Assembly: GCA_027484685.1 (NCBI GenBank)
Contig: JAIXSO010000036.1
Span: 1-64,000, forward strand
Direction of reading: 5' to 3'
Origin: Bacteroidota bacterium
GTDB taxonomy: Bacteria; Bacteroidota; Bacteroidia; UKL13-3
Length of the DNA: 64,000 nucleotides
Shown piece after piece: positions 27,025 to 36,565 of this stretch. The stretch's first letter is position 1; the number at the start of each line of letters is the position of its first letter. The notes under the pieces are model-generated. The model was not told where the DNA came from, ran no database searches, and saw only the letters and a program-made list of their open reading frames with translations. The position numbers were made by a program, and so were the translations under genes.

Positions 27025-28083
27025 TTGAACAAAATAGATATACGCGAACTTACGCTTGACGAATTAAAAGACATTTTTGTAAAAAAAGGTCAGCCTGCTT
27101 TTAGGGGTAAGCAAGTGTATGAATGGCTTTGGAAAAAGTCGGCTACCAGTTTTGATGAAATGAGTAATCTTTCTATCGAATTGCGTAATCTTCTGAACGA
27201 AGAGTTTTGTATCAATCATATAAAAGTTCAAGATAAACAGGTTAGCGAAGATAGAACAATAAAAAGTAGTTTTAGGCTTCATGATGGATTTTTGGTAGAA
27301 GGAGTTTTAATTCCAGCCGAAGACAGAATGACGGCTTGTGTTAGCAGTCAAGTGGGTTGTAGTTTAACGTGTAAGTTTTGTGCTACCGGTACCATGAAAC
27401 GCGAGCGTAATTTGACACCTGCCGAAATATACGACCAAGTGGTTCATATAAAAAATTGGGCTCAAAATCATTATGGAAAACCATTGACCAATATTGTTTT
27501 CATGGGCATGGGGGAGCCGTTGTTAAATTACAGCAATGTAATGGCGGCCATTAAAAAAATTACTTTACCCGAAGGTTTGGGTATGAGTAATGAGCGCATT
27601 ACAGTAAGTACTGCTGGTATTGCCAAAATGATAGAAAAGTTGGGCGATGATAATGTAAAGTTTCGTTTGGCACTTTCGCTACACGCAGCAAGCGATGAAA
27701 AACGAAACTTAATAATGCCTATTAACGAAAGCAACAGTTTAGAAGCGGTAGGCAAGGCATTACAACATTTTTACAATAAAACCAAAAGCCGCATTACCTT
27801 TGAATACATAGCCTTTAAAGATTTTAACGAAAGCATTGAAGATGCTAAAATGCTCCTTAAATTCTGCAAAAAAGTTCCTGCTAAAGTTAATGTAATAGAA
27901 TATAATCCCACTGGTGACGGTCAGTTTGAAAAAGCTGATAGCAAAAAAATAGATGCTTTTTGTGCCTATTTAGAAAAAAACGGTGTGAAAGCTACCGTGC
28001 GCAGAAGCCGTGGTAAAGACATAGATGCAGCTTGTGGCCAGTTAGCCAATAAAAAGCACGATGATGCTTTGATGGAAGGGTAA
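27025..28083 (+). CDS. rlmN: Dual-specificity RNA methyltransferase RlmN
   Basis: The 352-residue protein starts at TTG (27025) and shows QPAFRGKQVYEWLWKK, then CVSSQVGCSLTCKFCATG with radical-SAM cysteines C112, C116, C119, and the methyl-transfer cysteine pair C105 and C337 (AACGQL). NIVFMGMGEPLLNY and LALSLHAA are further family motifs. RlmN methylates C2 of A2503 in 23S rRNA and A37 of some tRNAs by a radical mechanism with a protein-bound methyl. It is apparently monocistronic, between repeat blocks on both sides. Confidence 0.96.
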   Translation: MNKIDIRELTLDELKDIFVKKGQPAFRGKQVYEWLWKKSATSFDEMSNLSIELRNLLNEEFCINHIKVQDKQVSEDRTIKSSFRLHDGFLVEGVLIPAEDRMTACVSSQVGCSLTCKFCATGTMKRERNLTPAEIYDQVVHIKNWAQNHYGKPLTNIVFMGMGEPLLNYSNVMAAIKKITLPEGLGMSNERITVSTAGIAKMIEKLGDDNVKFRLALSLHAASDEKRNLIMPINESNSLEAVGKALQHFYNKTKSRITFEYIAFKDFNESIEDAKMLLKFCKKVPAKVNVIEYNPTGDGQFEKADSKKIDAFCAYLEKNGVKATVRRSRGKDIDAACGQLANKKHDDALMEG

Positions 28084-28432
28084 AAGTTCGGAATGCGGAG
28101 TGACAAAAATGCGGAATAAATGCTTCCCTTCGTCAGATAGCTATCGAACAAGTTCAGTGTGACATTGGAATATTGGTTGCTGAGCGAAGCCGAAGCATGA
28201 ATGATAATCACGCAAGGCGTGAATGAATGTTTTAAATTTAGTATTCTTATACTTTAACGAAAATCCACTAACAACAAACGTCATTGCGATCACGCCTTAG
28301 CGTGAGAAGCAATCTCAAACGAGCATTTCCCGCACCATGTTAAGATGCTTTCCTGCTTTGGCGAGACAGGTTGTTCCTCAGCATGACGAACAACCTTCAA
28401 CGATCAACGAAATCACGCAAGGCGTGAATCAA
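28084..28432. repeat. Composite repeat block between rlmN and DUF1015 gene
   Basis: The 349-bp gap has no gene. It contains CCCTTCGTCAGATAGC ... GTTCAGTGTGACA near 28125 and GGTTGCTGAGCGAAGCCGAA at about 28174. Perfect mini-hairpins TCACGC-AAG-GCGTGA occur at 28208-28222 and 28413-28427. The hybrid repeat at 28280-28315 is listed separately, and a CCTCAGCATGACG arm lies near 28377. The last hairpin ends five bases from the DUF1015 stop codon. Confidence 0.75.
28280..28315. repeat. Hybrid repeat: mini-hairpin nested in a GTCATTGCGA...GAAGCAATCT element
   Basis: GTCATTGCGA (28280-28289) and GAAGCAATCT (28306-28315) match the left arm of the repeat at 26937 exactly. The central GGAAC of that copy is replaced by TCACGC-CTTA-GCGTGA (28290-28305), a hairpin of the same family found nearby at 28208 and 28413. 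This looks like a small hairpin inserted into, or exchanged with, the core of a larger repeat. Confidence 0.8.
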
Positions 28433-29680
28433 CTAAACTGTTTCGTAAATAACCAATCCTGTTCTAATTTTGGGTTCTATCCAAGTTGATTTTGGAGGCA
28501 TAATTAAATTCTCGTCTGCTACTTGTTTAACTTCCGATATACTGGTTGGGAATAAAGTAATAGCCAAATCAAAATCGCCACTATCTACCGCGCTTTGTAA
28601 GGTTAATAAACCACGGCTTCCATCTATAAAACTTAAGCGTTTATCGGTTTTACTATCGGTAATATTAAATATGCGTTTTAAAATAAACTCTTCTACAATG
28701 CTTACATCTAAATTAGCTAATGTACCTAATAGTGCATTTTCAAACTCAGGTTTTAACGTAATTACATAAGCATCGTTATTTAAGTAAATACCAAACTCGC
28801 GTTTGGCTAATGGCTGCACTGGCACATGCCCACTTGGAATAATATTAAAATACTCGCCAATTTGGGCCATAAAATTACCGCCATTTACCATGGCTTCGTC
28901 TTTTACCAAACGGTGGTATTCAAAAATATGTAGCTTGTTAAATGGAATTAAACAAACAGGGAAAAAGTTAAATAATTCTTGACCGTTATAATCAGGGTTT
29001 TTACTACGCATGATATCGCAGTAAGTAGCACAACCAGCACTGCGATGGTGTCCATCGGCAATGTATAAATTACTCATGGTGCCAAAAGCGGCTTCAATGG
29101 TAGCAATATCAGCTTTGTTATGAATAGGCCAAAGGTTATGTTTTAGTTGGTCTTGGCTTATAAAATTATACTCAGGCGCATGGCTGGCAATGGTGCGGTT
29201 TACTACCTCTTCTATATCGTTATTATCAGGATAGGTAAGTAATACAGGATTTCCTAAACCGCTGTAAAACTCTATATGTTCGGCTAACTCGTTTTGTTTT
29301 TCGGTTAACGTATTTTCGTGTTTTAAAATTACATTATTCTTATAATCATCAACCGAGGCCGAGGCTATAAGCGAAGTGTAGGCCACACTGCCTTTAATTA
29401 ACCTATACACATAAAAACTAGGTTCACTGTCTTTAATTAACACTTGCTCGGCCTTAAATTTATTTAAGTATTCTAATCCTAATGGAAAATGTTTTTCAGG
29501 ATTTTTCTTTTCGCCTTTAAAATGCAAATACGGTTTTACTACATGTAAGTAACTGTATGGATTACGCATAATTTCGTGGGTTGAAAGTTCGCGCAATGTA
29601 CTATCGTAACTTGGGGCAGATACTTGTGCTGCTTTATCTCTAGCTGGGCGCAATGCCGCAAAAGGTTTAATAATGGCCAT
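28433..29680 (-). CDS. DUF1015 family protein
   Basis: The 415-residue product matches DUF1015: it opens IIKPFAALRPARDKAAQVSAPSYD, has NPYSYLHVVKP near 40, FYVYR near 86, and the characteristic NLYIADGHHRSAGC near 210, followed by FFPVCLIPFNKLHIFEYHRLV. The GHHR motif resembles that of ParB/sulfiredoxin-fold kinases, so an ATP-dependent small-molecule kinase role has been proposed for relatives, but the reaction here is not established. In many genomes this gene sits near serine-pathway genes; that context is not visible here, where repeat blocks flank both sides. Confidence 0.9.
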   Translation of the reverse strand: MAIIKPFAALRPARDKAAQVSAPSYDSTLRELSTHEIMRNPYSYLHVVKPYLHFKGEKKNPEKHFPLGLEYLNKFKAEQVLIKDSEPSFYVYRLIKGSVAYTSLIASASVDDYKNNVILKHENTLTEKQNELAEHIEFYSGLGNPVLLTYPDNNDIEEVVNRTIASHAPEYNFISQDQLKHNLWPIHNKADIATIEAAFGTMSNLYIADGHHRSAGCATYCDIMRSKNPDYNGQELFNFFPVCLIPFNKLHIFEYHRLVKDEAMVNGGNFMAQIGEYFNIIPSGHVPVQPLAKREFGIYLNNDAYVITLKPEFENALLGTLANLDVSIVEEFILKRIFNITDSKTDKRLSFIDGSRGLLTLQSAVDSGDFDLAITLFPTSISEVKQVADENLIMPPKSTWIEPKIRTGLVIYETV

Positions 29681-29699
29681 AGGTATGTGTTAACGGCTG

Positions 29700-30085
29700 C
29701 AATTATATAGTTTTTAGTTCTTAGTTCATAGTATTTAGTGCATAGTTTACAGTACTAAGTTAGTTGCGGGTTTGTAGGGTTGCAGGTTTTTTAAAGTACG
29801 GTTGCTGAGCGGAGCCGAAGCATGGTTGCGGGTTGCGGGTTTAGGAGTTGCGGGTTTGTAGGGTTGCGAGTTTTTTAAAGAACGGTTGCTGAGCGGATCC
29901 GAAGCATGGTTGCGGGTTTTTGGGTTGCGGGTTTAGGAGTTGCGAGTTTAGGAGTTGCGAGTTGTTGGGTTACGAGTTTTTTAAAGACGGTTGATGAGCG
30001 GAGCCGAAGCATGGTTGCGGGTTGTTGGGTTACGAGTTTGTTTATTCATAATTTACCTGTCACCCTGAGCATGTCGAAGGGCATC
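29700..30085. repeat. GTTGCGGGTTTGTAGGG tract with periodic GGTTGCTGAGCGGAGC elements
   Basis: After an AGTTCTTAGTTCATAG tract (29706-29760) comes about 290 bp of degenerate GTTGCGGGTT units. Embedded are three copies of a 24-bp element beginning GGTTGCTGAGCGGAGCC at 29800, 29884 and 29989 (the last with one change). A GTCACCCTGAGCATGTCGAA element closes the block at 30059. The remaining part of the 779-bp gap, 30090-30412, shows no clear repeat or gene. The unequal spacing (84 and 105 bp) and lack of unique spacers exclude CRISPR. Confidence 0.75.
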
Positions 30086-30412
30086 CTTTCCACATTTAAC
30101 AGATTTATTCAAATAGTTTTGCAGCATCGAGTTTACACACTTTTTTCGACAGTCTCTTGCTATCCCTTTCCACTAATCTTCTATGACCTGAAAATTTATT
30201 TCTGAGTCCTTCAAATAAACTTTTATGTAATCCAAATTAGCTTTTAAGAATTCAATCTTACTGCTAAAAAAGTAACAAAATATCAACATTGATTCTGCTT
30301 AAATTTTTGATAATACTAGTACTTAGAAACTTATACTATAGTCTAAGTTTATGGTTAAAAGTTCACTTATAGCCTATGTTTTGAGGCGCGCTTTTAAAAT
30401 AAGTTGCGTGTT

Positions 30413-30466
30413 ATGGACATTTCTGAAAAAGTAGGAATTAGGATAAAAAGTATTAGAAAATGGTAA
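30413..30466 (+). pseudogene. Fragment resembling the start of an Xre-type regulator
   Basis: The 17-codon frame reads MDISEKVGIRIKSIRKW and stops. The segment resembles the first helix of HTH_3/Xre regulators (IGxRIKxIRxxKGLSQ) but the rest of the domain is missing. It overlaps the start of the zinc-ribbon gene by 7 nt. It is either a remnant of a lost regulator at the left edge of the island or a short translated leader. Confidence 0.4.
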
Positions 30467-30654
30467 ATTATTTTGAAGTTTATATTTTTTCAGATCAACC
30501 TACAACTTGTCCAAAATGTGGAAGTAGGTCAGATATTATTTTAGACTTGTCTCATACAAATTCTAAAACAGAAATACATTTTTGTCTTTTAAAAAATTGT
30601 AATTATGAATTTATCATGCAATTTGATGAAGATTTTGATAATGGGTTGTTGTAA
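30460..30654 (+). CDS. Small zinc-ribbon-like protein
   Basis: The 64-residue product carries C17-x2-C20 (TTCPKCGSRSD) and C42-x4-C47 (HFCLLKNCNYEF), a plausible four-cysteine zinc site. No family is recognised. Similar short CPKCG proteins are common on accessory islands of Bacteroidota. The gene lies 117 bp upstream of the Nudix gene on the same strand and could belong to the same module. Real translation is likely but unproven. Confidence 0.55.
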   Translation: MVNYFEVYIFSDQPTTCPKCGSRSDIILDLSHTNSKTEIHFCLLKNCNYEFIMQFDEDFDNGLL

Positions 30655-30771
30655 TGATAGAATCGGGATATTATGTATTCGTTAGCATTTTACGATTTTG
30701 TGGATTTATTGTTGTAAATCTTAATTTACTAATTAATTTATATTATTTTAATTGCATGAAAAATAATTAGT

Positions 30772-31164
30772 TTGAAAGTTATAAATGTTACATGTGCAAT
30801 TATTTTGAAGGATAATAAAATTTTAGTAACTCAAAGAAGTGAAAAAATGAGCTTGCCTTTAAAATGGGAATTTCCAGGAGGAAAACTAGAACAAGGAGAA
30901 AATGAAGTAGAATGTATTATCAGGGAGATAAAAGAGGAGTTAAATATTGAGATTGAAGTTTTAGAAAGGTTAACACCAAACATTCACTTTTACGAATCAT
31001 TTTCAATAAATCTAATCCCATTTATAGCTAGTTATAAATCAGGAGAAATAAATCTCATGGAACATGCTACATATAAATTATTAGATAAAAATAATTTATT
31101 AAGTTTGGATTGGGCAGAAGCAGACTTGCCGATTTTACATGAGTTAATTAACATAAAACTATGA
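30772..31164 (+). CDS. Nudix hydrolase (MutT-like nucleoside triphosphate pyrophosphohydrolase)
   Basis: The 130-residue product has a complete Nudix box: G37-x5-E43-x7-R51-E52-x2-E55-E56, with N58 where Gly is usual. It is preceded by QRSEKMSLPLKWEFPGGKLE, typical of (deoxy)nucleotide pyrophosphohydrolases such as MutT. It should hydrolyse a nucleotide triphosphate, possibly oxidised or modified, to the monophosphate. The start is TTG at 30772; an ATG 16 bp upstream is followed at once by a stop. Its TGA overlaps the ATG of the helicase gene (ATGA at 31161-31164), so the two are translationally coupled. That pairing suggests a joint role in nucleic-acid defence or repair. Confidence 0.9.
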   Translation: MKVINVTCAIILKDNKILVTQRSEKMSLPLKWEFPGGKLEQGENEVECIIREIKEELNIEIEVLERLTPNIHFYESFSINLIPFIASYKSGEINLMEHATYKLLDKNNLLSLDWAEADLPILHELINIKL

Positions 31165-34100
31165 ACCAAGGTATATATGAAGAGCTTGTAACTAAGCTTA
31201 TAAATATTAAGTTAAATGATATAGATAAAGACTTATTTTTCGTTGATGATAAAACAATTATTGACAAAGCCGAGGCTGCTGAAATTTTATCAAATCATGT
31301 TGGTAAATCTATAAAACACGCTTTAAATTTTATAAAAGGAGAAGATGCGCTTCAAACTCAAATACTAGTTGCAAACAAAATAATTCAATTTTTAAAAGAA
31401 GAATTAAATAAGGAAGAATTTGAAGATGATTTAATTGTTACTGAAGGTAAAATTTTAAAAGCAATTTTTTCAAAAGTAGATTCTCACTTCTCCGATTTGG
31501 ACTTACACTTAAAGGAAATAACACCTTATACAAGATTAACACATAGCGAATTATTTACGGGTGGAAACGCTGGACTTTCTTTAGAAAGTGAGTTGAAAAA
31601 AGAAATTTTATCATCGGATAAAATAGATTTATTAGTTTCATTTATTAAATGGAAAGGTATTATTATTTTAGAAAGGGAGCTAAGGGAATTTACTGAAAGA
31701 GGAGGAAAACTCAGAGTTATAACAACTACCTATATGGGCGCTTCCGATTTTAAAGCAATTCAATTATTGTCAAGTTTAAAGAATACTGAAGTAAAGATTT
31801 CATATAATACTGGAAATGAGAGGTTGCACGCCAAAGCCTATTTATTCCATAGAAATACAGGATTTCATACGGGATACATTGGTTCATCAAATTTTTCTCG
31901 TTCAGCTCTTACTGATGGTTTGGAATGGAACATAAAAATAACAACAAAAGAGGTAAGTCATATTATAGACAAATTTCAAAAAACTTTTGAAGCCTATTGG
32001 CAAAGTAGAGATTTTGAACTTTTTGATGTTAAAATACATTCTGAAAAGTTAACTAATGCTTTGAAGCAGGGTAAAATATCAAAGGAGTACGTGAATACTA
32101 CAGCATATTTTGATTTAAAACCTCATAATTATCAATCTGAAATTTTAAAAAAGCTTGAAGTTGAAAGAAATGTTCATCAAAGATTTAGAAACTTAATTGT
32201 AGCAGCTACAGGTACTGGAAAAACTGTTATTTCAGGTTTTGATTATCAGCAATTCAAACTAAAGAACAAATCAGCTAAATTATTATTTATTGCACATAGA
32301 AAAGAAATATTAACACAAGCTAGATCAACATTTCAAGGTGTTTTAAAAGACAATAACTTTGGCGAACTTTGGGTAGATGGAATTGTACCAAATAACTTCG
32401 AATATGTATTTGCTTCGGTTCAATCTTTAAATAATAAAATCAATGATTTGAAGTTAACTCCTGAATATTATGATTTTATTATTGTTGATGAAGTTCATCA
32501 TATTTCTGCATCTAGTTACAGGCCTATTATAAATTACTTCAAACCTAAAATTTTACTCGGATTAACAGCCACTCCTGAGAGAATGGACAATGAAAATATT
32601 TTAGAAGATTTCTGTAATAAAATTGCTGCTGAAATTAGGTTGCCGGAGGCTTTGAATCAAAAATTACTTTCACCCTTTCAGTATTTTGGAATTTCTGATA
32701 GTATTGATTTATCAAATGTTGCTTGGCAGAATGGAAAATATGTTGCGAGTGAATTAACCAATTTATATACTGCAAACGATAGACGCGTTAATGAAATTAT
32801 TAACAATCTGAATAAGTATACTAAGGATATTTATGATTTACGAACATTAGGTTTTTGTGCTTCAATAGAACATGCAAAATATATGGCAGAAAAGTTTTGT
32901 TTGGCAGGTTTGAAAGCTGAATATCTAACAAGTACAAATACTCAGAATAGGGAATTTTTGAAACAACAATTAATAAAAAAAGAAATTAACTATTTATTTG
33001 TAGTTGATATATTTAATGAAGGAGTAGATATTCCCGAAATAGATACAGTTTTATTTTTAAGACCGACAGAAAGTTTAACAGTTTTTCTTCAACAACTAGG
33101 ACGAGGCTTGCGTTTAGCTCATGGAAAGGATTGTTTAACAATCCTTGATTTTGTTGGCAATGCAAGACCTGAATATAATTTTGAAAACAAATTCAGAGCG
33201 CTAATAGGTAAAACAAACACGACTGTTCAAAAAGAATTAGAAGATAACTTCCCTCATTTACCATTAGGCTGTTCTATTATTTTGGAGAAAAAAGCTAAAG
33301 AAAATATATTGAAAAATATTATTGCTGCTACTAGTTTAAACAGAAATCAAATAATACAGAAAATTAGAAACTATCAGCACCAAACTACTTTACCTTTAAC
33401 TTTAAACAACTTTATAGAATTCAATAATATTCCAATTCAATCTATCTATTCAAAAGATAGTTGGAAAAGGCTTTGTCAAATTGCAGGTGTTATTGATAAT
33501 TTTGATTCTTTGAATGAAAAACAAATTGTTTCAGGCATTTATAAAAAACTCCTTTCAACAAATTCATTAAGTTATTTTACTTTTTTTCTAAAAATAGCTA
33601 ATAAAAATTTTGACATTAAAACGTCTGATTTTAGCAACGAAGAACAAGCTATGCTATTGATGATTCATTACGATATTTGGCAAAATGCAGGTGGTTTTAT
33701 TTCATTAGAAGAAAGTATAAAAGAGATAGGTAAAAACAAGATTATGGTAAAAGAAATAATTGAAGTTTTGGAGTATTTAATTGAAAAAATTGATTTTAAG
33801 GAAATAGATATTGATCTTCCATATAGTCAACCTTTAAAACTTCACTCAAGGTATACAAGAGACCAAATCTTAGTAGCATTTAGAATGAACAAGTTTGATA
33901 AATCTTCTTCAAATAGAATTGGCGTAGGGGTTGCTGAAAACAAGGATCTAAACACTGAAATTTTGTTCATAGATTTGGTAAAATCTGAAGAAAATTTTTC
34001 TCCTACAACCATGTATAATGATTATGCAATTAGTGAGTTGCTTTTTCATTGGCAAAGTCAAAATTCAGCTAGACCTGAAATTGGAAAAGGCTTATCCTAC

Positions 34101-34310
34101 ATAAAACAATTTGAAAATAATAAACACATATTATTATTTGTTAGAGAAAAGGCCAAAAATGAATTCAAAAATACAATGGGTTATGTATTTGTTGGAAAAG
34201 CTAAATTTGTAAATAGTGAAGGCGAAAAACCAATGAATATTACATGGGAATTGAATGAACCAATGCCTCATTATTTATGGAAGGATTCAGCTAAAATGTC
34301 AATTGGATAG
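31161..34310 (+). CDS. PLD-nuclease / superfamily 2 helicase / DUF3427 protein
   Basis: The 1049-residue protein has four parts. Residues 1-130 are helical and unassigned. A phospholipase-D-like nuclease domain (about 130-285) shows LHAKAYLF (H223, K225) and GSSNFS (241-246), one HKD-type site with Asp missing. An SF2 helicase core follows: ATGTGKT (349-355), DEVHH (443-447), TATPE (469-473), and motif VI QQLGRGLR (644-651). The C-terminal part from about 840 (LHSRYTRDQILVAFRMNKF ... PHYLWKDSAKMS) is DUF3427. Proteins of this build are thought to act on DNA or RNA and occur in defence-linked islands; the exact role is unknown. It is coupled to the Nudix gene by an ATGA overlap. Arginine codons look mostly AGA, unlike the CGT/CGC-using neighbours, which would fit transfer. 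Confidence 0.9.
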   Translation: MNQGIYEELVTKLINIKLNDIDKDLFFVDDKTIIDKAEAAEILSNHVGKSIKHALNFIKGEDALQTQILVANKIIQFLKEELNKEEFEDDLIVTEGKILKAIFSKVDSHFSDLDLHLKEITPYTRLTHSELFTGGNAGLSLESELKKEILSSDKIDLLVSFIKWKGIIILERELREFTERGGKLRVITTTYMGASDFKAIQLLSSLKNTEVKISYNTGNERLHAKAYLFHRNTGFHTGYIGSSNFSRSALTDGLEWNIKITTKEVSHIIDKFQKTFEAYWQSRDFELFDVKIHSEKLTNALKQGKISKEYVNTTAYFDLKPHNYQSEILKKLEVERNVHQRFRNLIVAATGTGKTVISGFDYQQFKLKNKSAKLLFIAHRKEILTQARSTFQGVLKDNNFGELWVDGIVPNNFEYVFASVQSLNNKINDLKLTPEYYDFIIVDEVHHISASSYRPIINYFKPKILLGLTATPERMDNENILEDFCNKIAAEIRLPEALNQKLLSPFQYFGISDSIDLSNVAWQNGKYVASELTNLYTANDRRVNEIINNLNKYTKDIYDLRTLGFCASIEHAKYMAEKFCLAGLKAEYLTSTNTQNREFLKQQLIKKEINYLFVVDIFNEGVDIPEIDTVLFLRPTESLTVFLQQLGRGLRLAHGKDCLTILDFVGNARPEYNFENKFRALIGKTNTTVQKELEDNFPHLPLGCSIILEKKAKENILKNIIAATSLNRNQIIQKIRNYQHQTTLPLTLNNFIEFNNIPIQSIYSKDSWKRLCQIAGVIDNFDSLNEKQIVSGIYKKLLSTNSLSYFTFFLKIANKNFDIKTSDFSNEEQAMLLMIHYDIWQNAGGFISLEESIKEIGKNKIMVKEIIEVLEYLIEKIDFKEIDIDLPYSQPLKLHSRYTRDQILVAFRMNKFDKSSSNRIGVGVAENKDLNTEILFIDLVKSEENFSPTTMYNDYAISELLFHWQSQNSARPEIGKGLSYIKQFENNKHILLFVREKAKNEFKNTMGYVFVGKAKFVNSEGEKPMNITWELNEPMPHYLWKDSAKMSIG

Positions 34311-34435
34311 TTTTAAAAATAAATCACTTTAACACTTCGATCCTCAACACTTCAACACCTAAAAACATCAACTACATCCACACTTAATAACTTGAACACA
34401 GCAAGAGGAAAAAAAATAATATATTGTGCCTCTTT

Positions 34436-36565
34436 ATGCACGAAACAGATTTTATAGCCATTATTGCGCAGCAACTTGGTATTCAGGCCAGGCAAGTAGC
34501 TGCTACCATTAAATTATTAAACGAAGGCAGCACCGTACCATTTATATCGCGGTACAGAAAGGAACTTACGCAGGCTTTAGACGAAGTACATATTGAAAAC
34601 ATAAGGTTATTAAATTTAAAATATACCGAATTAGTTAAGCGCAAACTTACCATTATAGATACCATAAAAGAGCAAGGAAAACTAACGCCTGCTTTAGAAA
34701 AAAGTATTGTAGATTGTTGGGATACCAACTTGCTAGAGGATATTTATTTACCATACAAACCAAAGCGTAAAACCAAGGCTAGTATAGCCCGCGAAAAAGG
34801 TTTGGAGCCTTTGGCTTTATGGTTACTGAAAGAAAATAACAACAGTGTAGAAATAGAAGCAGCGCGTTATTTAAAAAATGGCGTGCAAACCGAAGATGAA
34901 GCATTGCAAGGCGCTAGAGATATTATAGCCGAAATAGTGAACGAAGACCCCAAGGCACGTAACTTGGTGCGTAATCAGTTTGAAAAACATGCAGTGGTTT
35001 ATACCAAAGTGGCTAAAGGCAAGGAAGCAGAAGGCAGTAAATACCAAGATTATTTTAAGTACGATGAACCATTGAATCGTTGTCCATCGCACAGGCTTTT
35101 GGCAGTGTTTAGAGGCGAAGAAGAAGGTTTTTTAAAATTAAACATTGAGCCTGATGAAGACATAGCAGTTCAAAAACTGGAGTTTCAGTTTATAAAACGC
35201 AATAACGATAGCAGTTATCAAATAGAATTGGCTGTGAAAGATGCTTACAAACGATTGTTGGCACCTTCTATGGAAACTGAGTTTAGAAATTTAGCTAAAG
35301 CCAAAGCCGATGAAGAAGCCATTAGGGTTTTTGCCGAAAATTTAAAGCAATTATTACTGTCGGCACCTTTGGGTAGCAAGCGTATTTTAGCCATAGACCC
35401 AGGTTTTAGGTCGGGCTGTAAAGTGGTATGCTTAAATGAAGAAGGAAAGTTATTGGCCGATGATATTATTTATCCTCACGAGCCGCAACGCGATGCACAA
35501 CAGGCCATTGCTAAGCTTGCTTTTTTGGTTGAAAAGTATAATATAGAAGCTATTGCCATAGGCAACGGTACTGCGGGCCGCGAAACAGAAGATTTGGTAA
35601 GAGGCATTAACTTTAAAAACGAGCCACAACTGTTTATGGTGAACGAAAATGGTGCTTCGGTTTACTCGGCTAGTGAAGTGGCTAGAGATGAATTTCCGGA
35701 TAAAGATGTAACAGTGCGCGGTGCAGTATCTATTGGTCGTAGGCTTGCCGATCCATTGGCTGAGTTGGTAAAAATTGATGCCAAGTCGATAGGAGTGGGG
35801 CAGTACCAACACGATGTGGATCAAAATAAATTGAAACAAAGTTTGGATGTGGTGGTGCAAAGTTGTGTAAACCAAGTAGGAGTTAACCTAAATACTGCTA
35901 GTAAAAGTTTGCTTACTTATGTTTCGGGTTTAAGTGCGCAAACGGCTCAAAATATTATTAATTTTAGGAATGAACATGGGGCATTTACCTCGCGCAGTCA
36001 GTTGAAAAAAATACCACGTTTGGGTGAAAAAACTTTTGAACAATGTGCAGCTTTTTTACGTATTCCTGATGCTAAAAATGTGTTAGATAACAGTGCGGTG
36101 CATCCTGAAAGTTATGGAATAGTGGAGCAAATGGCCAAACAAAATGGTTGCAAGGTAGAAGATTTGGTAAAAAACGAAGTGATTAGAAAGGCTATAAAGC
36201 CCGAAAATTATATAACAGAAACAGCAGGTTTATTAACCATCAACGATATTTTAAAGGAGTTAGCCAAACCTGGCCGCGACCCGAGGGAAACACTTAAGCC
36301 GTTTACTTTTGCCAATGTTAAAAAACCAGAAGATTTATATGAAGGCATGGTATTACCAGGCATTGTAACCAATATTACCAAGTTTGGTTGTTTTGTAGAT
36401 ATTGGGGTAAAACAAGATGGTATGGTTCATATATCGCAATTGGCCGATAAATACATTTCGGATCCTAACCAAGTAGTAAAACTGCAACAACAGGTTCAAG
36501 TAAAAGTATTGGAAGTTGATTTGGCTAGGAAAAGAATTAGTTTGAGTATGAAGGGGGTTAATTGA
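34436..36565 (+). CDS. tex: Tex-family RNA-binding transcription accessory protein
   Basis: From the ATG at 34436 the protein has 709 residues. It shows the Tex layout: N-terminal helical part with LLNEGSTVPFISRYRKELTQALDEVHI, a YqgF-like RNase-H fold (ILAIDPGFRSGCKVV ... AIGNGTAGRETE ... VNENGASVYSASEVARDEFP), helix-hairpin-helix repeats (LNTASKSLLTYVSGLS, SRSQLKKIPRLGEKTFEQCAAFLRI), and a C-terminal S1 domain (GMVLPGIVTNITKFGCFVDIGVKQDGMVHISQL). Tex binds RNA and the elongating transcription machinery. A TTG four codons upstream is an alternative start. It is intact and housekeeping-like, marking the right edge of the accessory island; the 112-bp gap before it is an AACACTTCAACACC-type tract. 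Confidence 0.95.
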   Translation: MHETDFIAIIAQQLGIQARQVAATIKLLNEGSTVPFISRYRKELTQALDEVHIENIRLLNLKYTELVKRKLTIIDTIKEQGKLTPALEKSIVDCWDTNLLEDIYLPYKPKRKTKASIAREKGLEPLALWLLKENNNSVEIEAARYLKNGVQTEDEALQGARDIIAEIVNEDPKARNLVRNQFEKHAVVYTKVAKGKEAEGSKYQDYFKYDEPLNRCPSHRLLAVFRGEEEGFLKLNIEPDEDIAVQKLEFQFIKRNNDSSYQIELAVKDAYKRLLAPSMETEFRNLAKAKADEEAIRVFAENLKQLLLSAPLGSKRILAIDPGFRSGCKVVCLNEEGKLLADDIIYPHEPQRDAQQAIAKLAFLVEKYNIEAIAIGNGTAGRETEDLVRGINFKNEPQLFMVNENGASVYSASEVARDEFPDKDVTVRGAVSIGRRLADPLAELVKIDAKSIGVGQYQHDVDQNKLKQSLDVVVQSCVNQVGVNLNTASKSLLTYVSGLSAQTAQNIINFRNEHGAFTSRSQLKKIPRLGEKTFEQCAAFLRIPDAKNVLDNSAVHPESYGIVEQMAKQNGCKVEDLVKNEVIRKAIKPENYITETAGLLTINDILKELAKPGRDPRETLKPFTFANVKKPEDLYEGMVLPGIVTNITKFGCFVDIGVKQDGMVHISQLADKYISDPNQVVKLQQQVQVKVLEVDLARKRISLSMKGVN

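What the first reader, a model, noticed from the sequence alone, without database searches (positions are those of the whole stretch)
30413..34310. Compact Nudix + PLD-helicase-DUF3427 module, possible defence system
An accessory island between repeat tracts and tex holds a decayed Xre-like start, a zinc-ribbon protein, a Nudix hydrolase and a 1049-residue nuclease-helicase. The Nudix and helicase genes overlap by ATGA, so they are made together. A nucleotide hydrolase coupled to a nucleic-acid-cutting helicase suggests sensing or clearing of modified nucleotides, or phage DNA attack. I cannot name a described system with this exact set.
Basis: partly seen in the sequence, partly recalled or inferred. 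Interest (0 to 1): 0.75.

Follow-up and report, generated by a model that had tools for sequence, protein, structure and literature searches.

The report
Restriction enzyme paired with nucleotide cleaner
Next to a bacterial enzyme that probably shreds foreign DNA carrying modified cytosine sits a small enzyme that probably destroys modified-cytosine building blocks; the same pairing recurs across bacteria and archaea, including beside the well-studied Staphylococcus aureus enzyme SauUSI, and may be how the cell keeps its own DNA from becoming a target.

Summary
A 130-aa Nudix hydrolase (30772-31164) overlaps by ATGA a 1049-aa PLD nuclease-SF2 helicase-DUF3427 protein (31161-34310). The large protein is a homologue of SauUSI, the ATP-dependent type IV enzyme that shreds 5mC/5hmC DNA (PDB 7clg, E 8.6e-81; PADLOC mREase_IV, 3.9e-229). 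It lies in a sister clade with an extra N-terminal domain and Val where SauUSI has Tyr831 in the methylcytosine pocket. A Nudix gene adjoins 67 of 80 named SauUSI-family loci, in three layouts, in four bacterial phyla and archaea; 29 of 29 SauUSI-bearing Staphylococcus genomes, S. aureus included; and 0 of 40 McrC loci. Linked Nudix proteins are not one clade (AU p 1e-8), so the pairing probably arose repeatedly. A characterised relative (B. fragilis Q5LBB1) hydrolyses 5-methyl- and 5-hydroxymethyl-dCTP. Best explanation: the Nudix removes these precursors so that the host's own DNA does not become a restriction target (inferred). Nudix-less homologues count against a strict need. The 'decayed Xre start' is a relic of a controller gene; in a same-genus genome the intact gene precedes a C5-methyltransferase R-M system near the same flanking gene. 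The link was noted in print in passing; I found no mechanism proposed.

The parts
29707..30039 (.). degenerate tandem repeats between DUF1015 and the island
   Evidence: Tandem Repeats Finder
30317..30466 (+). relic of an R-M controller (Xre) gene: upstream region plus 17 codons and a stop (ATG 30413)
   Evidence: 75% DNA match over 147 bp to same-genus locus L377, where the intact gene precedes a C5-methyltransferase and an MvaI/BcnI-type endonuclease
30460..30654 (+). 64-aa zinc-ribbon protein, role unknown; possibly an accessory of the window's clade
   Evidence: homologues beside the enzyme in L012, L017/L156 and L018/L155; only copy in the genome
30772..31164 (+). Nudix hydrolase, TTG start, complete Nudix box; probable 5-methyl/5-hydroxymethyl-dCTP pyrophosphohydrolase (inferred)
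   Evidence: Pfam NUDIX 1.7e-15, PADLOC PDC-S07 9.2e-49, PDB 5x1x 2.9e-28, 3gwy 7.7e-19 and NudG 2rrk 3e-13
31161..34310 (+). SauUSI-like modification-dependent restriction enzyme, 1049 aa; overlaps the Nudix gene by ATGA
   Evidence: 7clg 8.6e-81; mREase_IV 3.9e-229; Foldseek 4.2e-47 to 7clg
31161..31580 (+). N-terminal ~140-residue domain of the window's clade, not found in SauUSI
   Evidence: no Pfam or PDB relative by sequence
31617..32000 (+). PLD nuclease domain, H223/K225
   Evidence: Pfam PLDc_2; HxK in all 112 aligned homologues
32115..33116 (+). SF2 helicase-like ATPase, Walker A K354
   Evidence: ResIII and Helicase_C
33672..34283 (+). DUF3427, the SRA-type target recognition domain (pocket F936, D954, W964; V924 in place of SauUSI Tyr831)
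   Evidence: Pfam; residue mapping; SauUSI pocket from PMC7913695

Best explanation
A two-gene modification-dependent (type IV) restriction module. (1) The 1049-aa protein is a SauUSI-like enzyme: an SRA-like C-terminal domain flips out a 5-modified cytosine, this switches on the SF2 motor, the enzyme runs along the DNA, and a dimer of PLD domains cuts (from homology and conserved residues; not assayed). [quoted passage not shown] (3) Its role is self-protection: shredded foreign DNA, or phage metabolism, puts 5-modified dCMP into the pool; if rephosphorylated it would be built into the host chromosome and make it a restriction target. The Nudix keeps the chromosome free of the mark, so it is the functional counterpart of the methyltransferase of an ordinary R-M system but acts on the precursor pool. 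The recurrent linkage of Nudix and enzyme is shown; steps 2 and 3 are hypotheses.
For: Enzyme; pocket D954 and W964 in 26/26 of the clade and F936 in 24/26. SauUSI cuts 5mC and 5hmC DNA (PMC3874153; PMC7913695). Linkage: 67 of 80 named loci, three layouts, four bacterial phyla and archaea; 29 of 29 SauUSI-bearing Staphylococcus genomes against 2 of 32 without SauUSI (Fisher 2e-15); 18 of 25 Bacteroidia loci against 0 of 40 McrC loci. Linked Nudix not one clade, p-AU 1e-8. Substrate: Q5LBB1/3gwy kcat/Km 4.8e6 for 5-Me-dCTP and 4.4e6 for 5-hydroxymethyl-dCTP, and NudG prefers 5-Me-dCTP (PMC5158307); Asp118 shared with both and kept in 84 of 86 linked Nudix. Feasibility: both nucleotides are incorporated like dCTP by a DNA polymerase (PMC10742078). 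The host has no C5-methyltransferase.
Against: No assay of either protein. Nudix-less members exist: most of the window's clade outside Bacteroidia, eight Lactobacillaceae, and G108, which has a full-length enzyme beside a Nudix remnant lacking the Nudix box. None of the seven Nudix-less Bacteroidia carriers has a 3gwy-type Nudix elsewhere at E 1e-12. McrBC, also 5mC-dependent, has no such neighbour. Asp118 also occurs in 3hhj, named MutT, so it does not fix the substrate. The window Nudix is only 39% identical to 3gwy. SauUSI-family carriers do not avoid C5-methyltransferases (9/25 against 125/270, p 0.40).
Confidence: 0.5

Rival explanations
1. Offensive role: the Nudix destroys the 5-hydroxymethyl-dCTP (or other modified dNTP) that a phage makes for its own genome, starving its replication, while the nuclease attacks the modified DNA that is still made.
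For: Relatives hydrolyse 5-hydroxymethyl-dCTP as fast as 5-Me-dCTP (PMC5158307); PADLOC lists the Nudix alone as a defence candidate, PDC-S07.
Against: Removing the modified precursor would lower the mark that the nuclease needs. Linked Nudix are not found next to McrBC, which would gain equally. In Bacteroidia several related Nudix stand alone in non-defence neighbourhoods.
Confidence: 0.15
2. General housekeeping: the Nudix removes oxidised or otherwise damaged nucleotides (5-OH-dCTP, 8-oxo-dGTP) that arise during stress, and is only loosely connected to restriction.
For: Family is close to NudG and MutT; Q5LBB1 also acts on 5-OH-dCTP, about 50-fold less well.
Against: Specific and repeated linkage to one enzyme family, not to McrBC. 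In Staphylococcus the gene is nearly confined to genomes with SauUSI (31 against 29). MutT and NudG NCBIfam cut-offs are not reached (70.9 against 97.9 and 79.7 against 156 bits).
Confidence: 0.2
3. The enzyme is a DNA repair helicase-nuclease (RadD/XPB-like) and the Nudix its repair partner.
For: The ATPase core matches RadD (7r7j, Foldseek 9.8e-19; best VIA-align Z 31 over about 340 residues).
Against: The match is confined to the motor. Full-length similarity, PLD nuclease and SRA pocket follow SauUSI. RadD's NCBIfam cut-off is missed widely (120 against 720 bits). Distribution is patchy: of ten sampled genomes of the window's family besides its own, one has it.
Confidence: 0.05
4. The Nudix tunes the nuclease or acts on a signal (ATP/dATP, ADP-ribose or another nucleotide) rather than on modified dCTP.
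For: SauUSI uses ATP or dATP (PMC3874153); Nudix enzymes are diverse.
Against: Linked Nudix resemble pyrimidine dNTP-type Nudix (NudG, 3gwy), not ADP-ribose or Ap4A hydrolases.
Confidence: 0.08
5. The adjacency is mere hitch-hiking inside a defence spot.
For: The locus near DUF1015 is variable in the genus.
Against: Overlapping genes, three layouts, several Nudix lineages, several phyla.
Confidence: 0.02

Closest known systems
SauUSI (S. aureus type IV restriction enzyme, PDB 7clg; PMC7913695)
   Same: PLD nuclease, SF2 ATPase, coupler and DUF3427/SRA target domain in the same order; HxK; pocket Phe, Asp and Trp; Nudix gene adjoining.
   Different: About 27% identical; window protein belongs to a sister clade with an extra ~140-residue N-terminus and Val for Tyr831; activity not assayed.
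Q5LBB1_BACFN (PDB 3gwy) and E. coli NudG (2rrk), 5-substituted dCTP pyrophosphohydrolases
   Same: Nudix fold, catalytic box, Asp118, EH motif.
   Different: 39% identical to 3gwy; substrate of the window protein not measured; whether 3gwy itself adjoins a SauUSI homologue in B. fragilis was not determined.
PADLOC PDC-S07 (candidate defence gene)
   Same: The Nudix matches at 9.2e-49; co-localised with type IV R-M in 23 of 23 S. suis cases (PMC12813430).
   Different: Listed as a stand-alone candidate, no function proposed.
MutT-like 'DNA repair' genes beside SauUSI homologues in Streptococcus (Bell et al. 2020, PMC7641849, Fig. 9 legend)
   Same: Same gene pair, noted in a figure legend.
   Different: Only Streptococcus; in the passages I read no role is proposed, and the spread over phyla and repeated origin are not described.
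Ordinary type II R-M with C5-methyltransferase (G385, L377)
   Same: Sits near the same flanking gene; the relic in the window is its controller start.
   Different: It marks DNA with 5mC to protect self; the window's system probably attacks that mark.

Membership tests
SauUSI-type type IV restriction enzyme | PLD nuclease domain with HxK | tested here: met
   PLDc_2 2.2e-12; H223/K225, invariant in both clades. The E126 position is variable in both clades.
SauUSI-type type IV restriction enzyme | SF2 helicase-like ATPase in the same chain | tested here: met
   ResIII 2.1e-39, Helicase_C
SauUSI-type type IV restriction enzyme | C-terminal DUF3427/SRA target domain with 5mC pocket | tested here: met
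   DUF3427 1.9e-28; F936, D954, W964 kept; structural alignment to 7clg runs to residue 1045
SauUSI-type type IV restriction enzyme | Tyr831, methyl-contacting residue of SauUSI | tested here: not met
   Val924; Val in 24 of 26 of the clade. So it is filed as a homologue in a sister subfamily, not as SauUSI.
SauUSI-type type IV restriction enzyme | inside the SauUSI clade | tested here: not met
   sister clade, SH-aLRT 100
SauUSI-type type IV restriction enzyme | no cognate methyltransferase | tested here: met
   none adjacent; no PF00145 in the genome
SauUSI-type type IV restriction enzyme | ATP-dependent cleavage of 5mC/5hmC DNA | not testable with these tools
   needs protein
5-substituted dCTP pyrophosphohydrolase (NudG/Q5LBB1 type) | complete Nudix box | tested here: met
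   G37, E43, R51, E52, E55, E56
5-substituted dCTP pyrophosphohydrolase (NudG/Q5LBB1 type) | groups with characterised members | tested here: inconclusive
   in a 63-row group with NudG (SH-aLRT 95) but apart from 3gwy; 125 columns only
5-substituted dCTP pyrophosphohydrolase (NudG/Q5LBB1 type) | NCBIfam NudG equivalog cut-off | tested here: not met
   79.7 against 156 bits; not filed as NudG
5-substituted dCTP pyrophosphohydrolase (NudG/Q5LBB1 type) | hydrolysis of 5-Me-dCTP and 5-hydroxymethyl-dCTP | not testable with these tools
   needs protein
MutT (8-oxo-dGTP) | NCBIfam equivalog cut-off | tested here: not met
   TIGR00586 70.9 against 97.9 bits
PADLOC PDC-S07 | matches the model | tested here: met
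   9.2e-49
RadD repair helicase | NCBIfam equivalog cut-off | tested here: not met
   NF053632 120 against 720 bits

The most novel reading that the evidence does not exclude
A widespread form of restriction in which self is protected at the level of DNA precursors: a Nudix enzyme keeps 5-methyl- and 5-hydroxymethyl-dCTP out of the nucleotide pool so that the partner modification-dependent nuclease (SauUSI itself included) never finds its mark in the host chromosome. The partner was recruited several times from different Nudix lineages.
Probability: 0.42. Interest if true: 0.82.

Novelty: new variant of a known kind. Interest (0 to 1): 0.6.

Why it matters
Type IV enzymes have no cognate methyltransferase, and how their hosts avoid cutting themselves when modified cytosine nucleotides enter the pool is rarely asked. 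If the pairing works as proposed, SauUSI, a major barrier to gene transfer in S. aureus and to genetic work in staphylococci, is really a two-component system whose second gene has been overlooked. A listed but unexplained defence candidate (PDC-S07) would get a function. The question becomes directly testable with one enzyme assay and one gene deletion in a laboratory strain.

Tried and rejected
The 187-aa 'Nudix' hit downstream of the enzyme in L005/L152 reads as an isopentenyl-diphosphate isomerase, so it was not counted (identified by eye from sequence motifs). Neighbours of the Nudix-less lactobacillar enzymes were read for an alternative pyrophosphohydrolase; none was evident. Expected avoidance of C5-methyltransferases by carriers of the enzyme: not seen. 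Loss order in Staphylococcus (broken SauUSI with intact Nudix in G339, G357, G372, G382; no intact SauUSI without Nudix): the enzyme gene is about seven times longer, so the asymmetry carries little weight and is not used as evidence. Empty-site test: tex was not found next to DUF1015 in any of five relatives' regions, so no clean empty site could be shown. No Rfam element at 28000-36500. The first AlphaFold2 run with 12 sequences was poor (pLDDT 68); the 33-sequence run gave 80.4 and was used. Papers: the two that hold both 'Nudix' and 'type IV restriction' did not, by title and abstract, concern this pair; nor did those on 5-methyl-dCTP with McrBC; none held Nudix with 5-hydroxymethyl-dCTP and restriction endonuclease. 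The 2011 SauUSI paper is not held, so a remark there cannot be excluded.
Full report
WHAT IS THERE. A TTG-started Nudix gene (30772-31164) shares ATGA with a 3150-bp gene (31161-34310). In front lie a 64-aa zinc-ribbon ORF (30460-30654) and 17 codons of an Xre-like gene (30413-30463) that end in a stop. DUF1015 is upstream and tex downstream. The island has 28.0% G+C against 36-39% for rlmN, DUF1015 and tex, though other window genes are also low.

THE LARGE PROTEIN. Pfam gives PLDc_2, ResIII, Helicase_C and DUF3427. The best PADLOC model is mREase_IV at 3.9e-229. The best solved structure by sequence is 7clg, SauUSI (8.6e-81, residues 147-997), and the predicted model (33-sequence alignment, mean pLDDT 80.4) has 7clg as its top Foldseek match at 4.2e-47. 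SauUSI is an ATP-dependent type IV enzyme that cuts DNA with 5mC and 5hmC (PMC3874153), shreds DNA between sites, and has an SRA fold in its C-terminal domain (PMC7913695). The pocket residues proposed there map as F841 to F936, D858 to D954 and W868 to W964, all conserved; Tyr831, placed at the methyl group, is V924 here. In the window's clade Val occurs in 24 of 26, in the SauUSI clade Tyr in 83 of 86. So the enzyme very probably reads a modified cytosine, but not necessarily the same one.

TWO CLADES. A tree of 117 enzymes (quick method, LG+G4) splits off the window's clade: members of about 1050 aa with an extra ~140-residue N-terminal domain that matches no Pfam or PDB family. It is sister to the SauUSI clade, which holds S. 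aureus SauUSI and homologues from Bacillota, Actinomycetota, Bacteroidota, Vibrio and archaea.

THE NUDIX BELONGS TO THE SYSTEM. In 80 named loci found with a SauUSI-headed alignment a Nudix lies next to the enzyme in 67: 48 upstream on the same strand (mostly overlapping or nearly so), 11 downstream on the same strand, 8 downstream and convergent. Of the 13 without, eight are Lactobacillaceae and four (L043, L064, L090, L101) are cut by the contig end on the side where close relatives carry the gene. From Nudix density in 29 of these genomes (2.2 per Mb) a neighbour within 1.1 kb on either side is expected about 0.5% of the time; the loci are related, so the binomial figure overstates significance. 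In Staphylococcus 29 of 61 genomes have SauUSI and all 29 have the Nudix next to it (28 at a nearly constant spacing; the other is G382, with a wrecked SauUSI); 2 have the Nudix alone and 30 have neither. The S. aureus-type Nudix is identical to PDB 5x1x over the 125 residues compared, in the genome whose enzyme is 100% identical to 7clg. As a control for defence loci and for other 5mC-dependent restriction, 40 McrC places in the same 295 Bacteroidia genomes have no such Nudix, against 18 of 25 SauUSI-family places (Fisher 1e-10). The 18 are 9 of 9 SauUSI-type and 9 of 16 window-type enzymes.

REPEATED RECRUITMENT. Linked Nudix proteins do not form one clade: holding them together against 25 solitary or reference Nudix costs 201 log units, p-AU 1e-8. 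Broadly, Bacillota/Actinomycetota linked Nudix (with the S. aureus one) form one group, Lachnospiraceae/Methanobrevibacter another, Bacteroidota/Methanolobus a third (with 3gwy), and the window-type Nudix sit among solitary Bacteroidia Nudix in a larger group with NudG (short alignment, many weak forks). Two viral-contig Nudix (L174, L179) stand near NudG. Within the window's clade the Nudix is absent from Pseudoalteromonas, Hymenobacter, Peptoclostridium, Acetoanaerobium and Arthrobacter, upstream in Bacteroidia, and downstream in L174, L176 and L262. The simplest reading is several independent gains, but counts of changes (27 of layout, 15 of presence) cannot tell gain from loss.

LIKELY SUBSTRATE. 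The catalytic Nudix box is intact, and Asp118, shared with NudG and 3gwy, is kept in 84 of 86 linked Nudix. The B. fragilis enzyme Q5LBB1 (taken here as 3gwy, from my own knowledge of the entry) was measured: 5-Me-dCTP 4.8e6, 5-hydroxymethyl-dCTP 4.4e6, 5-OH-dCTP 8.5e4 per M per s (PMC5158307). E. coli NudG prefers 5-Me-dCTP to CTP (same paper). Thus the base that the nuclease reads in DNA and the base that the Nudix relatives remove from the pool are the same; this match, with the linkage, is the core of the argument. A DNA polymerase incorporates both nucleotides like dCTP; the likely source of 5-Me-dCTP is degraded methylated DNA; and phage kinases for 5-Me-dCMP and 5-hydroxymethyl-dCMP are reported (PMC10742078).

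MECHANISM. Shown: linkage, intact active-site residues, homology. Inferred: the enzyme recognises 5-modified cytosine; the Nudix hydrolyses the matching dNTPs; by doing so it stops the host chromosome from acquiring the mark. SauUSI's habit of shredding DNA would feed modified mononucleotides into salvage; this may be why SauUSI, but not McrBC, carries the partner (speculation).

THE XRE RELIC EXPLAINED. A 147-bp stretch around 30317-30460 matches a same-genus genome, G385 (75%). There the same codons open an intact Xre/controller gene, followed by a C5-cytosine methyltransferase (PF00145, 2.4e-98) and an MvaI/BcnI-family endonuclease (PF15515, 2.3e-46). That system also lies close to DUF1015, with a pair of genes that read as HipB/HipA-like between. 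So the site beside DUF1015 is a variable spot, and here a type II system that marks DNA with 5mC seems to have been replaced by one that probably attacks 5mC. The host genome has no PF00145 methyltransferase. In the class as a whole, carriers do not avoid such enzymes (9/25 against 125/270, p 0.40), so this is one coherent case, not a rule.

WHAT IS KNOWN. Bell et al. 2020 note in a figure legend that small 'DNA repair' genes beside SauUSI homologues in Streptococcus are MutT homologues (PMC7641849). A 2026 S. suis survey reports PDC-S07 and type IV R-M co-localised in 23 of 23 cases, without explanation (PMC12813430). I found no paper that ties the Nudix to the enzyme's target base, but the library lacks most subscription papers and the 2011 SauUSI paper.

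VERDICT. A real two-gene type IV restriction module, a new variant of a known kind. The pairing is solid and general; the self-protection mechanism is attractive and testable but unproven, and Nudix-less homologues, including G108 with a decayed Nudix beside a full-length enzyme, show that it is not indispensable everywhere.

Noticed in passing
L060:5866-9291 (and length-matched relatives L059, L068, L077, L081, L082, L020, L022-L027): Bacteroidota SauUSI-type enzymes of about 1130-1150 aa carry a C-terminal Peptidase_S24 (LexA/UmuD-type) domain (Pfam 3.7e-7 in L060, above its cut-off), which suggests SOS-linked self-cleavage of a restriction enzyme.
   Followed up: partly
31161-31580: The ~140-residue N-terminal domain of the window's clade is predicted helical and matches nothing by sequence in Pfam or PDB.
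   Followed up: partly
30460-30654; L012:1306-1461; L155:4749-5048; L156:8158-8379: A small zinc-ribbon gene recurs beside window-clade enzymes, elsewhere convergent and downstream; very weak resemblance to Lar/Ogr-type zinc fingers.
   Followed up: partly
L377:7637-10460: Same-genus genome G385 has a controller + C5-methyltransferase + MvaI/BcnI-type R-M system near DUF1015, the source of the Xre relic in the window.
   Followed up: yes
33930-33935 (V924) and aligned homologues: The window's clade has a near-fixed Val where SauUSI has its methyl-contacting Tyr831 (24/26 against 83/86 Tyr), so it may read another cytosine modification.
   Followed up: partly
L175, L177, L254-L259, L263: Window-clade enzymes occur on large plasmids and in phage or viral contigs, mostly without the Nudix.
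   Followed up: no
L157:9540-10060: G108 keeps a full-length window-type enzyme beside the C-terminal remnant of a deleted Nudix, in a genome with two McrC genes and a C5-methyltransferase.
   Followed up: partly
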